Source: Cloacibacillus evryensis DSM 19522
Lineage (GTDB): Bacteria > Synergistota > Synergistia > Synergistales > Synergistaceae
NCBI RefSeq assembly: GCF_000585335.1
Contig: NZ_KK073872.1
Location: 1,293,283 to 1,357,282, forward strand
Reading direction: 5' to 3'
Length of the DNA stretch: 64,000 bases
Shown here: positions 13,011-18,916 of the stretch, one piece after another
How the letters are laid out: every line of letters begins with the position of its first letter
Position numbering within the stretch: the stretch's first letter is position 1
Notes under the pieces: model-generated
Seen by the model: the letters and a program-made list of their open reading frames with translations, nothing else
The model's database searches: none
What the model was told of the DNA's origin: nothing
Translations under genes and position numbers: made by a program

Positions 13011-13439
13011 TTATTCTTCCCGCGTCCTTAATACATGCTCTTCGCCGTCTGTCATCAGAAAGGCAGCCCAAAGCTCAAACGCCTCTTTTATATTCCTGGG
13101 ATCGTGCCCCGTCAGCACCCTTATCTTTTTGAGCCGGTACTGAAGGCTGTTGCGGTGAAGGTGCATTTTTCCCGCCGTCTTTGAACAGTTAAAAGGCGAT
13201 TCGCAGAAATTCATGAAGGTCTCGCGGAGTGTCTCAAAGTCGTTTCTTTCGGTAAGTTCCGCAAGGATATGCGCAGAGTAGTCTTCTTTAAAGGGCTCAG
13301 GAAGGCCCTTCAGCATTTCAGCTACTCCGGCCTGTTCCGCGTTTTCGGCATTGCCGATGAAATCCAGGCCGTCTATGTGCGTCAGTCTGTAAGCTTCCAA
13401 ACTTTTTTCGTTGACTGCGGCGCTTTCCATCTTCAGCAT
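13011..13439 (-). CDS. Truncated CdaR/PucR-type regulator (C-terminal HTH part)
   Basis: About 142 aa whose last third is the PucR/CdaR C-terminal helix-turn-helix: NCSKTAGKMHLHRNSLQYRLKKI followed by LTGHDPRNIKEAFELWAAF. Full-length sugar-diacid regulators are around 350-400 aa with an N-terminal sensor, so most of the protein is missing. The ATG at 13439 follows the GrdB-like stop by 7 nt with an AAGAAAG-like site; the frame is open further upstream, but that would overlap the neighbouring gene. It may be a functional short regulator or a remnant. Confidence 0.6.
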   Translation of the reverse strand: MLKMESAAVNEKSLEAYRLTHIDGLDFIGNAENAEQAGVAEMLKGLPEPFKEDYSAHILAELTERNDFETLRETFMNFCESPFNCSKTAGKMHLHRNSLQYRLKKIRVLTGHDPRNIKEAFELWAAFLMTDGEEHVLRTREE

Positions 13440-13446
13440 TCTTTCT

Positions 13447-14304
13447 TCAATTGACGATAAGGCAGGCGTCTTCGTCGGGCACTTCTTCAAGAAGCGCGAG
13501 CGCCCTGTCAAATAGCCTTTTGCGCCATTCTGCCTCCTGCTCCGGCGGGATGTCGGGATTCCCGAATACATGGCTTATATTGCTGCCCTTTAGTATCCGG
13601 CTGCATCCGACACCTTCCGATATCTGCGTCAGGTTTGTTACATGCACCACTGGGATACCGGCAATTTCGATCTCGCACGCCATATAGGCGCCGCATCTTG
13701 TGCTAGTGCCGCAGGTTGAAGTAAGTATGACCCCGTCGACTCCGTTATGCCTGAGTGAACACGCGATGCCCTGCCCCATTTCCCGGCTTTTTTCGACAGA
13801 CTGCATTACTCCGGCGGTCGAATAGAACGCCTCCAGCAGCGCGCCTATCCTTCCGCCGGCTTCGGCTGTTCGCGCGGCGTCAAGGGGAACGAGCCTGTTG
13901 GGGTCCTCAAGTACGAATTTATTGTAATACCCCTGGTGGCTCACTTCGTAATCTTCGGGCGACAGGCGCTTTTTCCCTTTGAACCGGTAGAGACGGAACT
14001 TGTCGGCGGCGACTGGGGGCTGGCAGTCGGGATTACCTGCCGGAACAAGCCCGCCGTCCGTAACGAGTGCGATCTTCGCCTCTTTCAGCGCTTTTGAAAG
14101 CTTTGCTACCGGTATTGACTGCGGCGGCGCGATACAAACTTCGCTCTTGAATCCCCGGCCGTGATATTTTGCCAGCAGCATATCGATACCTCTGACGGCC
14201 GCCGGAGTATTGTAATCTATCTCCGCGCCGGTCACGGCGGGCTTTGGAAGCCGACTGTCACGGCAACGCGGAGTCCATATAATATCGGGATATCGTTTAG
14301 GCAT
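13447..14304 (-). CDS. GrdB-family protein, Cys variant lacking the N-terminal third
   Basis: A 285-aa homologue of the selenoprotein subunit of glycine/sarcosine/betaine reductase protein B. It aligns from residue 27 onward with residues from about 175 of the Sec-containing paralogue nearby (shared IALVTDGGLVP.GNPD, DPNRLVP, YSTAGVM, ISHVFG). The position equivalent to Sec350 is Cys198 (TGC, 13711-13713) in TSTCGTSTRCGA. About 152 N-terminal residues of the family are absent and replaced by a short unrelated start. GAGGT precedes the ATG. The C-terminal catalytic region looks intact, so it is probably expressed rather than decayed. Confidence 0.78.
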   Translation of the reverse strand: MPKRYPDIIWTPRCRDSRLPKPAVTGAEIDYNTPAAVRGIDMLLAKYHGRGFKSEVCIAPPQSIPVAKLSKALKEAKIALVTDGGLVPAGNPDCQPPVAADKFRLYRFKGKKRLSPEDYEVSHQGYYNKFVLEDPNRLVPLDAARTAEAGGRIGALLEAFYSTAGVMQSVEKSREMGQGIACSLRHNGVDGVILTSTCGTSTRCGAYMACEIEIAGIPVVHVTNLTQISEGVGCSRILKGSNISHVFGNPDIPPEQEAEWRKRLFDRALALLEEVPDEDACLIVN

Positions 14305-14412: not shown

Positions 14413-14970
14413 TCAGGCAGCCTCGAGCGGGAATGCAAGGTTCGCCTTTATCTTTTTGAGCTTTTCAAAATAGATCATATAATTTGCCTGCATCCCCCCG
14501 CGCACCCATTCCATGATCACGCCGACATATGCGTAGGCTTCAAGGCGGCCCAGTATATAGAGTTCGTCTTCGGCAAGCTTGTATCCGACTTGAGTATATA
14601 CGGTAAGGATATGTATCTTCATAAGTTCGAAATAAGATTCCACGAGCGAATCCGAAAGCGAATTCTGCCCGACATAATTAAAGACTTCCATATAAAAATC
14701 GCGGTTCTGAAGCATGTACTTGCAGAGATTAACAAACCCGTCCAGATATCTTTCAGGGTCTGAGAACGTATTTATGACCGGCAGCGTCTCAGAATAGAAT
14801 ATCCAGTGTACCAGGTCATATTTATCGCGGAAATGGTAGTAAAAAACGTTCCTGCTCACTCCGCACTGAGAGGTTATGTCTTTCACTGTTATCTGTCCGA
14901 GCCTTTTCTTCTTCATGAGCTCTTTCAGACATACGCCGAGAGCAGTCTTTGTAATATCAGTTTTCGGCAT
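14413..14970 (-). CDS. TetR-family transcriptional regulator
   Basis: A 185-aa TetR protein. The N-terminal helix-turn-helix (about 24-50) reads QITVKDITSQCGVSRNVFYYHF followed by the usual KYDLV. The C-terminal ligand domain resembles the DhaS/TetR_C_8 type. It lies between the Sec-GrdB gene and the Cys-GrdB-like gene on the same strand, so it is a candidate regulator of both. GGGGAAGGG is placed upstream of the ATG. The ligand is unknown. Confidence 0.88.
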   Translation of the reverse strand: MPKTDITKTALGVCLKELMKKKRLGQITVKDITSQCGVSRNVFYYHFRDKYDLVHWIFYSETLPVINTFSDPERYLDGFVNLCKYMLQNRDFYMEVFNYVGQNSLSDSLVESYFELMKIHILTVYTQVGYKLAEDELYILGRLEAYAYVGVIMEWVRGGMQANYMIYFEKLKKIKANLAFPLEAA

Positions 14971-15066: not shown

Positions 15067-16383
15067 CTACTCTTTGATTATTGCGCGTTCCCCTTCCGCG
15101 GGCGTCTCTTCGAGCATATGGAGCGCCATCTCTACGCGCTTTTCTCTGTATGCCTTTTCACTGGGCAGAGGCAGCGTCGGATCTCCGAAAACATGCAGGA
15201 CGCTGTTTCCGCGGAGTATCCTGTTCGAGCCGATGCCCTCCGCGATCTTTGTAAGATTTGTCACTTGGATGATGGGGATTCCTGCGCGCTGTATCTCTTT
15301 TGTGATCATGGACCCGCCACGACTGCTCGTTCCTCAGGTGGAGGTTTCGATCGCGGCGTCGCAGCGGTCGGCGATCAGCTCCTTGGCGATGCCTTCGCCG
15401 AATTCCTTGCATTTTTCCATAGGCGTCATGACGCCTGCCGTTGAGTAGATGACATCGTCGACGCTGCCGATGATCCCCTCATCCGCCAGCTTGCGCAGCG
15501 CGTCTACGGGGACGAGTCTGTTTGGATCCTGAAGCACGAAGGCGTTGTTGTACCCCTGATGGCTGACTTCCCAGTCTTTAGCGTTCAGCGCATCCATGTC
15601 CTTGATCGAATAGCGTTTGTAGGCTCTTGAGTTTGTCGGCACCTGATTGTCCGGATTGCCCAGCGGCACAAGCCCTCCGTCCGTCACAAGCCCTATCCTG
15701 CATTCCGAAAGAGGCTTTTTGAGGACGGGGATCGGTATCTCTTCATGGTTTGGCATAATGACTTCGGTGTGGTAGGCTTTGCCCTCATGTTTTGCCAGAA
15801 GCATATCAATGCCTCTCTGCGCTGCGGGGATCGTATAGTCTATTATCACCGCGGGGCCGCTTCCATGATAGCGCTCCGCTTTTCCATCGCGGATCGCGTC
15901 GCCTGCGATGAGGCGCTTCGCAAAGGCTGCGATCTCGCCGATGACTTTTACCAGGTTTCTTGCGTTGTTGTCGCTCTGCAGGATATAGCACCGATTCTTA
16001 AACAGGTCGGTTCCCGGGTTCTCCGCAAAGAGCGCAGTTACCGCCGGTATCCTCAGCTCTTCCGTAACGGCGGCCGTCGTTGAGCCGCAGCCGAGCCCGT
16101 AACGCCCCGCGTTGAACCCTGGGCCCGCTACAAACAGGTCGGCCCCGGCGCCGCGCACGATATCTATTATTTGCGGGATTATCTCCTCGGGATGCTCCGC
16201 TATCGTATTGTCGCCGCAGACGATAGTCTTTACGATCTCGTAATCCGGTCCCAGCGCTTTTGCCAGCGCCGCTCCGGGACCGGCCGCGCCCTCTTTTACC
16301 GAAAGGCCGACGCTTGCCGTATCTTCGCCGCCCATTCCGGCATAGAACTGGTTAATGTAATGAACTACCTTTTTCTTAGTCAT
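15067..16383 (-). CDS. GrdB-family reductase selenoprotein (in-frame UGA = Sec350)
   Basis: Homologue of the selenocysteine subunit of glycine/sarcosine/betaine reductase component B (438 aa with readthrough). The N-terminus VVHYINQFYAGMGGEDT and the later FNAGRYG, ENPG and LVTDGGLVP.GNPD are family hallmarks. Two open stretches are joined through TGA at 15334-15336 (complement), giving TSTUGTSSRGG; Sec falls at residue 350, the family position. The strand continues without another stop to 15067 and retains family sequence (AGIPIIQVTNLTKIAEGIGSNRI). The two cysteines that normally follow the Sec (U..C..C) are Ser and Gly here. The ATG at 16383 overlaps the GrdE-like gene by 8 nt. GrdA, GrdC and GrdD are not in the window. 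Substrate unassigned. Confidence 0.9.
15334..15336 (-). other. UGA selenocysteine codon
   Basis: The TGA is preceded by codons for IETST and followed by GTSSRGGSMITKEI, matching the Sec position in the GrdB family. A small ACGA/TCGT stem with a GCAG loop begins 3 nt after the codon; a bacterial SECIS must lie just downstream, but its exact fold was not resolved by eye. Confidence 0.87.
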
Positions 16384-17647
16384 TGTTAGTTCCCTCCCTC
16401 GGTATATCGCTGTCCGTCGTAACATAGCAGTCTCCGAGCTGCGACCAGATGCCCTGGTAGCAGAAGTTCGTCGTATGCTTGAACGGCCCCCGCGGGTCCA
16501 GTCCCAGCAGGCACGGGACGTTGGCCTTTTCGCCGACGAGCCGATCGACTTTAGGATGATCGAGGTCCCAGTTCCTGCCGCTGTTGATAACCGCGTCAAC
16601 TTTCGGGTCCGCGATGACGAGCATGTCGCCCGGCTCATAATTGCTGACCGCAGACAAGTTCAGCGCCGCGGTCATGCCTAATTTCTGGCACCAGTTGAAG
16701 GCGAGAGCCGAGTCAAGCTGGCAGTGGCCCATCCCTGATTTATTCAGCATTACGCAGTCGGCTCCGAGCGTATCTTTGCAAAGCGTTGCTGAAATCATGC
16801 TCATAGTGTCTTTTCCGTCGATCTTCATAACGTTATTGTCAAAGACGACGCCGACAAACTCCAGGTCCTTGCCGTGGCGCTTCATCAGCTCTTTGATATA
16901 AACTTCGTTCTGAAGGAAATAATTCGGTTCCCAGTAACGCCATATCATCGCGCCGTCCAGTATCTCCGTAGGCTGGACGACGATGGGGAGGAAATTCAGC
17001 GCGCTCTGGCCGTAGTAGAGGAAATTCCACGTATCGTGGGAGGCCATGTGGGTAACGAGATAGGCGACCTTCGGCAGTTTCTTCTCCGCGGGGACAGGCT
17101 TGCGCTCGAATACTTCCGTTTCGTCGGGCTCAAGGCCTATTGTCAGCTTCGCAAGAAAAACGTTGACCGACAGCGACGCCCGTTTAAGAGCTTCGGCATA
17201 ACTTGCGTCTGAAACGCCTTCTCCCGGCGTCGCGTCTATGCATACGTGGAAATGACGCGAGAAATTGCTGTATTTGGCGCATGGGCCGCCCATATCCATA
17301 TAATATTTAACGTTGCACTTAGCGTAATAAATGTCTGAGACCACGACGCCTTTAAGCGCCACTGTGCGCCCTTCGCCCGCCGGGGCAAGCTTTCCCCAAA
17401 TACCGGGATATGATTCCTCTGGGTGATCGGCTCTGCAGCGCGGCTGCATGACGTCATGGAGCCCGAGGATGCGGCAGTTTTCACCGGGGCGCACCAACTG
17501 TATGTCAAGCGAACCGAAAAGATCGCTTGCGGCCTCTTTGAGCAGGTCTTCCTTGTTTACTGTAAGGACGCCCTTATCAAGCGAAGTTTTTTCTCCGAAT
17601 TTTACATCGCGGACTTTTATATAGTCTATCTGGAGTCTTTTAGTCAT
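16376..17647 (-). CDS. GrdE/GrdG/GrdI-family reductase component B, alpha/beta precursor-like
   Basis: A 423-aa homologue of the precursor subunit of glycine/sarcosine/betaine reductase protein B: VRDVKFGEKTSLDKGVLTVNKEDL at the N-terminus, GRTVALKG near 94, PTEILDGA at 226-233 and LMKRHGKDLEFVGVV near 254-268. In GrdE as I recall it, the segment after DGA contains the Cys at which the proprotein is cleaved to form a pyruvoyl group (SGNCVSACDKN). Here it is replaced by WRYWEPNYFLQNE, with no Cys between 137 and 289. Self-processing is therefore unlikely. It is translationally coupled to the Sec-GrdB gene. Confidence 0.85.
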   Translation of the reverse strand: MTKRLQIDYIKVRDVKFGEKTSLDKGVLTVNKEDLLKEAASDLFGSLDIQLVRPGENCRILGLHDVMQPRCRADHPEESYPGIWGKLAPAGEGRTVALKGVVVSDIYYAKCNVKYYMDMGGPCAKYSNFSRHFHVCIDATPGEGVSDASYAEALKRASLSVNVFLAKLTIGLEPDETEVFERKPVPAEKKLPKVAYLVTHMASHDTWNFLYYGQSALNFLPIVVQPTEILDGAMIWRYWEPNYFLQNEVYIKELMKRHGKDLEFVGVVFDNNVMKIDGKDTMSMISATLCKDTLGADCVMLNKSGMGHCQLDSALAFNWCQKLGMTAALNLSAVSNYEPGDMLVIADPKVDAVINSGRNWDLDHPKVDRLVGEKANVPCLLGLDPRGPFKHTTNFCYQGIWSQLGDCYVTTDSDIPREGTNND

Positions 17648-17665: not shown

Positions 17666-18916
17666 TTATCCTCTGCACGGAATGCCGTTCTGCTTGTATA
17701 TCTCTCCGTCTTTCATGACAAAGCTGATATTTTCTGTGCTCAGATCGCCCATATCTTTTAACGGATCTCCGTTGATCGCTGTGATATCGGCAAGCTTTCC
17801 CGGTTCAATGGTGCCGAGGCGGTCGTCCCATTTCATAAACTCCGCGCAGTACCGAGTTGCGCCGAGCAGAGTATCTTCGGGCGAGATGCCTGCCTCCGTC
17901 ATGCATTTGAACTCGCCGTGCTGTTTCCCGTGGACCATCAGCGGCGTGCCGGTATCTGTGCCGAAAAGGCAGCGGACTCCGCGCTCATATATTTTCTTGA
18001 TATTCTTGGCATGCTGAGGCGAGAGAAACGCCGCCTTCGCAACCGTGGCGTCGCCCACTCCGCGCTCTTTGCCGTGCGTCATAACGCCGCGGAACGTAAG
18101 CAGCGTTGGCACCGCGCATACGTTGTTTTCAAGCATGTAGTCGATGCATTCGTCGTCGGCCAGCGTGCAGTGTTCGATCGAAGAGATGCCCGCGCGGGCT
18201 GCGTCTTTAATGCCGGAGGTGCCGTGCGCATGGCAGGAGATGACGACGTTGTGCATCTTTGCCACGTCGACGGCCGCTTTTATCTCGTCATAGTCCATAT
18301 TCTGCCCGCCGATATCTCCGCTGTTGCTGTAGACGCCGCCGGTGACCATGATCTTGAGGAAATCGACGCCGAACTTGAGCATCGTTCTGCAGGCCGTCCG
18401 CACTTCGTAAGGCCCGTCGGCCGAATTGACCGGTTTGAAGTTCTGCTGCCCGAAAGAATCCTGGGGATAACTTGTCGACATATGCCCGCCGGTCTGCGTG
18501 ATATACATTCCGCTTGTAAAGATGCGCGGGCCCCATGTTATTCCTTTGTTGACCGCGTCGCGGATGCACTGGCTGCCGCGGACTGAAGTGAAGCCGAGGT
18601 CGCGGACGGTGGTGAATCCGCCCATAAGGTCGTCCTGCACATTTCTAACGGCCTTGACGCAGACCAGCGCCTCCGGTTCGTTGACTTCGCTGATGGAAAG
18701 CCCTCCGCCGAACGCGATATGGACATGGCCGTCGATCAGCCCCGGCATTACAAACTTGTCGGACAGGTCGATCAGTTCTTCGCCCGGAAGCGGCTTGTAA
18801 TCCTCTGCGCTTATCACTTCTGTGATCTTGCTGCCTTCGACGCGGACGACTTTATTCTTTTCCGCATTGCCGTCGCGCGCGCTGAAAAGCTTTCCGCACT
18901 TGATTGCTGCTTTCAT
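17666..18916 (-). CDS. Metal-dependent amidohydrolase
   Basis: A 416-aa amidohydrolase-superfamily enzyme of the imidazolonepropionase/prolidase-like group. Metal and catalytic motifs are visible in order: HVH at 64-66, the Lys in FLKIMVTGG that is usually carboxylated, His in SCHAHGTSG, His in SIEHCT and Asp in FGTDTGTPL. It would hydrolyse a C-N (amide or cyclic amide/imine) bond in the cytoplasm. It is 18 nt upstream of the GrdE-like gene, so it may release or open the substrate of that reductase. GGAGGT precedes the ATG. The exact substrate is unknown. Confidence 0.85.
   Translation of the reverse strand: MKAAIKCGKLFSARDGNAEKNKVVRVEGSKITEVISAEDYKPLPGEELIDLSDKFVMPGLIDGHVHIAFGGGLSISEVNEPEALVCVKAVRNVQDDLMGGFTTVRDLGFTSVRGSQCIRDAVNKGITWGPRIFTSGMYITQTGGHMSTSYPQDSFGQQNFKPVNSADGPYEVRTACRTMLKFGVDFLKIMVTGGVYSNSGDIGGQNMDYDEIKAAVDVAKMHNVVISCHAHGTSGIKDAARAGISSIEHCTLADDECIDYMLENNVCAVPTLLTFRGVMTHGKERGVGDATVAKAAFLSPQHAKNIKKIYERGVRCLFGTDTGTPLMVHGKQHGEFKCMTEAGISPEDTLLGATRYCAEFMKWDDRLGTIEPGKLADITAINGDPLKDMGDLSTENISFVMKDGEIYKQNGIPCRG

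What the first reader, a model, noticed from the sequence alone, without database searches (positions are those of the whole stretch)
15067..16383. GrdB-family selenoprotein encoded through an in-frame UGA
Two minus-strand frames are parts of one GrdB homologue separated only by TGA at 15334-15336. Readthrough restores the family sequence and puts Sec at residue 350 in TST-U-GTSS. A standard gene caller would report two truncated genes. The organism must therefore have selA/selB/selC/selD.
Basis: partly seen in the sequence, partly recalled or inferred. Interest (0 to 1): 0.75.

Follow-up and report, generated by a model that had tools for sequence, protein, structure and literature searches.

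The report
Fluoroacetate reductase selenoprotein FarB, plus sensor candidate
The in-frame stop codon really encodes selenocysteine in FarB, the already described subunit of a bacterial enzyme that breaks down the plant poison fluoroacetate; next to it sits a conserved pair of genes, not discussed in the text of the papers found, that looks like the switch that senses the substrate.

Summary
Observation confirmed. The minus-strand GrdB-family gene at 15067-16383 is open except for one UGA at 15334-15336 (residue 350). The UGA codes for selenocysteine: it is conserved in 26 of 26 relatives covering the site, the sequence beyond it is under strong purifying selection, a hairpin just after it shows compensatory base changes, and the genome has selA, selB, selD and tRNA-Sec.

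The gene is more specific than 'GrdB homologue'. Its partner at 16376-17647 scores 912 bits against NCBI's fluoroacetate reductase FarE model (cut-off 675). The gene is therefore farB of the far locus described by Leong et al. (PMC10838667), including the loss of the CxxC of GrdB's UxxCxxC motif. The selenoprotein itself is known.

What appears undescribed is the pair downstream: a DhaS-like TetR regulator (14413-14970) and a short GrdB paralogue with Cys in place of Sec (13447-14304). The short gene occurs in 21 of 28 FarE loci across phyla, was seen nowhere else in the genomes searched (Synergistota hit list truncated), branches with FarB, and is fused to the TetR in one genome. Best reading: an enzyme paralogue turned substrate-sensing co-regulator, as DhaQ is for DhaS. 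That role is inferred, not shown.

The parts
15067..16383 (-). farB: GrdB-family selenoprotein, 438 aa, Sec350
   Evidence: FarB clade 100/99 support
15334..15336 (-). UGA codon for selenocysteine 350
   Evidence: UGA in 26 of 26 FarB loci that cover the site; context STUGTS
15305..15323 (-). bSECIS-like hairpin, stem beginning 11-12 nt after the UGA
   Evidence: compensatory CG/UA and UA/GC pairs; hairpin lost in the Cys paralogues
16376..17647 (-). farE: fluoroacetate reductase subunit, no pyruvoyl site
   Evidence: NF053623 912 bits, cut-off 675; region aligned to the NCVSAC/HCTVC motif of the genome's other GrdE-type genes is absent
17666..18916 (-). amidohydrolase (PF01979; weak imidazolonepropionase hit), lies where C. 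porcorum-type loci have radical-SAM farC
   Evidence: hutI is named in the Fig. 3d legend of PMC10838667
19158..20402 (-). farA-like MFS transporter (oxalate/formate and lactate family)
   Evidence: 54% identical to the G134 transporter
14413..14970 (-). TetR-family regulator, DhaS type
   Evidence: TIGR02366 95.7 bits (below the 129 cut-off); nearest solved structures 4mk6 and 2iu5 DhaS by sequence and by fold
13447..14304 (-). short GrdB paralogue (C-terminal half only, 285 aa) with Cys at the Sec site; candidate substrate sensor
13711..13713 (-). TGC codon (Cys198) at the position of FarB Sec350
   Evidence: Cys in all short paralogues

Best explanation
15067-16383 is farB, the selenocysteine subunit of the substrate-specific protein B of fluoroacetate reductase, a branch of the glycine reductase family. 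SHOWN by sequence: the UGA is conserved with a downstream bSECIS-like hairpin, the Sec machinery is present, FarE and FarB are neighbours, FarE has no pyruvoyl site, and FarB has lost the CxxC. INFERRED from PMC10838667 and glycine reductase chemistry: the FarB selenolate attacks the fluoroacetate carbon and releases fluoride; the carboxymethyl-selenoether passes to the single GrdA selenoprotein and then to protein C, giving acetyl phosphate. INFERRED here, with lower confidence (about 0.55): the neighbouring TetR and short Cys-GrdB form the switch of the locus, the short paralogue binding the substrate and acting through the TetR, as DhaQ does for DhaS. The confidence given below is for the FarB selenoprotein identity.
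For: Sec. FarEB identity: FarE model 912 bits against a 675 cut-off; 7 of 185 Synergistota genomes exceed the cut-off; operon as in PMC10838667. No pyruvoyl site in FarE. One GrdA gene with a TGA in the genome. Sensor pair: the short paralogue is in 21 of 28 non-redundant FarE loci and a related TetR in 22; all seven GrdB-half hits without an in-frame stop listed in 183 Synergistota genomes lie beside FarE, as do all eleven in 16 genomes reached through other loci, mostly Bacillota; natural TetR-GrdB fusion of 525 aa; TetR and short-GrdB distances correlate at r = 0.874, against 0.585 and 0.601 with FarE; short and FarB form one clade, 100/99, apart from 29 other GrdB; TGCACAAA enriched in the promoters of 9 of 18 loci.
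Against: No Sec incorporation, substrate or regulation was measured here. FarE-type genes occur in organisms with no obvious exposure to fluoroacetate (for example Catonella morbi and Faecalimonas umbilicata), so the substrate of the wider family may differ. The TetR is below the curated DhaS cut-off. Five FarE loci lack the short paralogue in the stretch examined (L048, L058, L069, L070, L073), and L068 has the TetR but no short paralogue. The operator-like word is absent from this window.
Confidence: 0.9

Rival explanations
1. FarEB here reduces another, more common non-amine carboxylate, and fluoroacetate is a fortuitous substrate. (This competes with the substrate part of the best explanation, not with the Sec part.)
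For: FarE relatives at 74-85% identity occur in human oral and gut Bacillota, Olsenella and a Deltaproteobacteria MAG. Neighbours include lactate permease, M20 and alpha/beta hydrolases and, in this window only, an amidohydrolase. PMC10838667 itself suggests another preferred substrate.
Against: The operon is induced several thousand-fold by fluoroacetate but not highly by glycine in C. porcorum MFA1, and Cloacibacillus and Pyramidobacter strains release fluoride from it.
Confidence: 0.4
2. The UGA is a true stop or a sequencing error and farB is a pseudogene in two pieces.
For: A standard gene caller splits it.
Against: UGA at the same codon in 26 of 26 loci from several phyla, hairpin with compensatory changes, third-position-biased change downstream.
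Confidence: 0.01
3. The short Cys-GrdB is a working accessory enzyme subunit (a Cys form of protein B, as short as PrdB), not a regulator.
For: It keeps the active-site motifs DGGLVP, HQGY and CGTS-RCG; in L065 it lies directly after farB.
Against: Fused to a TetR in L047; evolves with the TetR rather than with FarE and diverges faster than FarE; lacks the N-terminal half.
Confidence: 0.25
4. The short Cys-GrdB is a decaying duplicate of farB with no function.
For: Faster divergence than FarE; a truncated PucR-like fragment lies beside it in the window.
Against: Open frame over the whole domain in all copies examined, invariant Cys, third-position-biased change, constant association with the TetR.
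Confidence: 0.05

Closest known systems
farACEB operon of Cloacibacillus porcorum MFA1 (Leong et al., PMC10838667)
   Same: FarE and FarB with Sec, CxxC lost in FarB, no pyruvoyl site in FarE, MFS transporter upstream; G134 of the same genus has the same order with a radical-SAM gene
   Different: Here an amidohydrolase stands where farC stands; the TetR and short Cys-GrdB are not discussed in the text (the legend of Fig. 3d names hutI and acrR; the figure itself could not be seen)
GrdB, GrdF and GrdH selenoproteins of glycine, sarcosine and betaine reductase
   Same: PF07355 and TIGR01918 matched, STUG context, paired with a GrdE-type subunit
   Different: UxxCxxC motif not kept; far below the curated cut-offs of the three specific models
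DhaS and DhaQ, regulators of the dihydroxyacetone kinase operon
   Same: DhaS-type TetR paired with a paralogue of the enzyme the operon encodes (that DhaQ is a DhaK paralogue is recalled; DhaQ is called a coactivator in PMC7911632)
   Different: The paralogue here belongs to the GrdB family, keeps a Cys nucleophile and is unrelated to DhaK
PrdB of D-proline reductase
   Same: Short, C-terminal half of the GrdB architecture
   Different: PrdB carries Sec in some bacteria (PMC13188914); the short paralogue always has Cys and matches GrdB/GrdF models much better

Membership tests
Bacterial selenoprotein | In-frame UGA conserved across relatives, with constrained sequence after it | tested here: met
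   26 of 26 loci; codon-position bias downstream
Bacterial selenoprotein | bSECIS hairpin just after the UGA | tested here: met
   94.6% of cells paired, 16 cells with double changes, 0 of 500 shuffles as high; Cys paralogues lack it. Function not shown.
Bacterial selenoprotein | selA, selB, selC, selD in the genome | tested here: met
Bacterial selenoprotein | Selenium in the protein | not testable with these tools
   needs 75Se labelling or mass spectrometry
Fluoroacetate reductase (FarEB) | FarE above the curated model cut-off, FarB adjacent | tested here: met
   912 bits against 675; FarB overlaps farE by 8 nt
Fluoroacetate reductase (FarEB) | FarB without CxxC, FarE without the pyruvoyl cysteines | tested here: met
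   UGTSSRGG; alignment with six GrdE-type paralogues. Relatives in a second FarB subclade keep one of the two Cys.
Fluoroacetate reductase (FarEB) | Release of fluoride from fluoroacetate | not testable with these tools
   shown for cultures of related strains in PMC10838667, not for this protein
Classic GrdB (UxxCxxC) | UxxCxxC motif | tested here: not met
   U-GTSSRGG; both Cys absent
GrdB, GrdF, GrdH specific models | Curated model cut-offs (602, 800, 775 bits) | tested here: not met
   349.7, 402.7, 366.8 bits
DhaS regulator (TetR at 14413-14970) | TIGR02366 cut-off of 129 bits | tested here: not met
   95.7 bits
DhaS regulator (TetR at 14413-14970) | Fold and sequence nearest to DhaS among solved structures | tested here: met
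DhaS/DhaQ-type pair | Enzyme paralogue binds ligand and acts through the TetR | not testable with these tools
   only genetic linkage, co-divergence and one fusion are shown

The most novel reading that the evidence does not exclude
The DhaS-like TetR and the short GrdB paralogue form a two-part sensor dedicated to the far operon: the paralogue of the enzyme, with Cys where the enzyme has its catalytic Sec and without the N-terminal half, binds or is carboxymethylated by the substrate and switches the TetR, which in several relatives may act at TTTGTGCA sites. This would be a second, unrelated instance of the DhaS/DhaQ principle and would account for the several-thousand-fold induction by fluoroacetate.
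Probability: 0.55. Interest if true: 0.65.

Novelty: new member of a known kind. Interest (0 to 1): 0.45.

Why it matters
The selenoprotein itself fits a published anaerobic route for breaking a carbon-fluorine bond and extends its gene set across Bacillota, Actinomycetota and a Deltaproteobacteria MAG. The neighbouring pair makes an open question testable: how the cell detects a small haloacid well enough to induce the operon several thousand-fold. If the sensor reading holds, it is also a Cys relative of a Sec enzyme that serves as regulator, with no SECIS hairpin at the corresponding spot.

Tried and rejected
Pseudogene or sequencing error at the UGA: rejected by conservation. Search for solved relatives of FarB: none at E 0.01. 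Fold search with the short GrdB model: no Foldseek hit at E 0.001 and only middling Z-scores to Rossmann-like folds, not interpreted. Operator search in the window itself: nothing; the TTTGTGCA word is seen only in relatives. Two first attempts at the GrdE alignment gave no usable output and were replaced. Direct evidence for DhaQ as a DhaK paralogue was not found in the library; that part is from memory.

Full report
OBSERVATION. Reading TGA as a residue gives one 438-aa protein at 15067-16383 on the minus strand, with a single U at residue 350. Pfam GRDB covers residues 3-349 and NCBIfam TIGR01918 residues 5-425, across the UGA. The start codon overlaps the end of the upstream gene, which fits a translationally coupled pair.

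SELENOCYSTEINE. Four lines agree. (a) The genome G000 has tRNA-Sec (76.2 bits), selB, selA directly beside selB and a selD that itself holds an in-frame TGA. (b) In 26 FarB loci that cover the site, from Synergistota, Bacillota, Actinomycetota and a Deltaproteobacteria MAG, the codon is always UGA. (c) Downstream codons change mostly at the third position: 8/2/44 over 88 codons against the same-genus copy. (d) A seven-pair hairpin starting 14 nt from the U of the UGA is kept in 94.6% of cells, with 16 double changes and no shuffle of 500 as high. Pairs 18-28 (CG/UA) and 19-27 (UA/GC) switch together between the two FarB subclades, so the change from RCG to RGG in this window's subclade is matched on the other arm. 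In the window itself the innermost pair is not formed. The Cys paralogues form 2-6 of the eight pairs counted at the same place, a useful negative control, although shuffles do not correct for relatedness.

IDENTITY. The neighbour at 16376-17647 scores 912 bits against NCBI's FarE model (cut-off 675). Leong et al. (PMC10838667) described farACEB in C. porcorum MFA1, with farB split over two annotated genes, a SECIS element, the lost CxxC, the missing FarE cysteines and induction by fluoroacetate of about 5,000-fold. Two of these features were checked here: the motif is UGTSSRGG, and the region holding NCVSAC or HCTVC in several GrdE-type paralogues of this genome is absent from FarE, which fits a substrate that cannot form a Schiff base. 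In this window an amidohydrolase stands where G134 has a radical-SAM gene. The paper says the C. evryensis operon lacks the radical-SAM gene and its Fig. 3d legend names hutI; the window may therefore come from C. evryensis or a near relative, which is an inference.

THE PAIR DOWNSTREAM. Immediately after farB come a TetR regulator and a 285-aa gene that matches only the C-terminal half of GrdB, with TGC (Cys198) at the Sec position. Its open frame, invariant Cys and third-position-biased change argue against decay. It is in 21 of 28 non-redundant FarE loci. In 183 Synergistota genomes the seven listed GrdB-half hits without an in-frame stop all lie beside FarE, the list being cut at E about 1e-46. 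In 16 genomes reached through other loci, mostly Bacillota, all eleven such hits do too, and every other listed GrdB has one TGA. In the tree, short paralogues and FarB form one clade (100/99) apart from 29 other GrdB genes; FarB alone is also one clade; the short group is not resolved as a single clade (midpoint root).

WHY A SENSOR. The TetR's nearest solved relatives are the Listeria DHAK regulator 4mk6 and L. lactis DhaS 2iu5, by sequence and by fold, though it is below the curated DhaS cut-off (95.7 against 129 bits). DhaS works with DhaQ, a paralogue of the enzyme it controls (from memory; DhaQ is called a coactivator in PMC7911632). Here too the TetR is paired with a paralogue of the enzyme. 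In L047 the two are one open frame of 525 aa. Their distances over 20 loci correlate at 0.874, against 0.585 and 0.601 with FarE, none of 2,000 permutations as high for any pair; shared descent alone would give some correlation. The word TGCACAAA occurs in the promoter stretches of 9 of 18 loci, against at most 6 for any such 8-mer with three or more G/C in 200 shuffles; the stretches were chosen after the word had been noticed in part of them, and some loci are close relatives. L065 holds TTTGTGCAT-N10-ATGCACAAA perfectly twice and once with one mismatch. The word is not in this window. These are indications of function, not a demonstration.

VERDICT. The handed finding is right and, as a predicted selenoprotein, already published. 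The added value is the specific identity, a stronger case for the SECIS hairpin, and a conserved regulator pair whose role can be tested directly. Literature coverage was limited to open-licence full texts; figures and supplements could not be read, so 'undescribed' means not found in the texts searched.

Noticed in passing
L047:5409-6986 (-): Natural fusion of a DhaS-like TetR with the short Cys-GrdB in one 525-aa open frame.
   Followed up: yes
L065:9667-9798: Three inverted repeats TTTGTGCAT-N10-ATGCACAAA (two perfect, one with one mismatch) between the divergent TetR and farE; a candidate operator.
   Followed up: partly
window 13011-13571 (-): PucR-type HTH_30 domain alone, overlapping the end of the short GrdB frame; looks like the C-terminal remnant of a larger regulator.
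   Followed up: no
window 17666-18916 (-): Amidohydrolase inside the far gene run, not found in any other far locus examined; substrate unknown.
   Followed up: partly
L069:11276-12328 (+): FarB frame broken by a TAA after 138 codons in a Clostridium MAG; assembly error or pseudogene not settled.
   Followed up: no
L052 (G000:C1:1728349-1729275): selD of this genome has an in-frame TGA, so SelD is probably itself a selenoprotein.
   Followed up: no
L061:6108-7826 (-) and relatives: Lactate permease genes recur beside far loci of Pyramidobacter and Bacillota, hinting at a small monocarboxylate substrate.
   Followed up: partly
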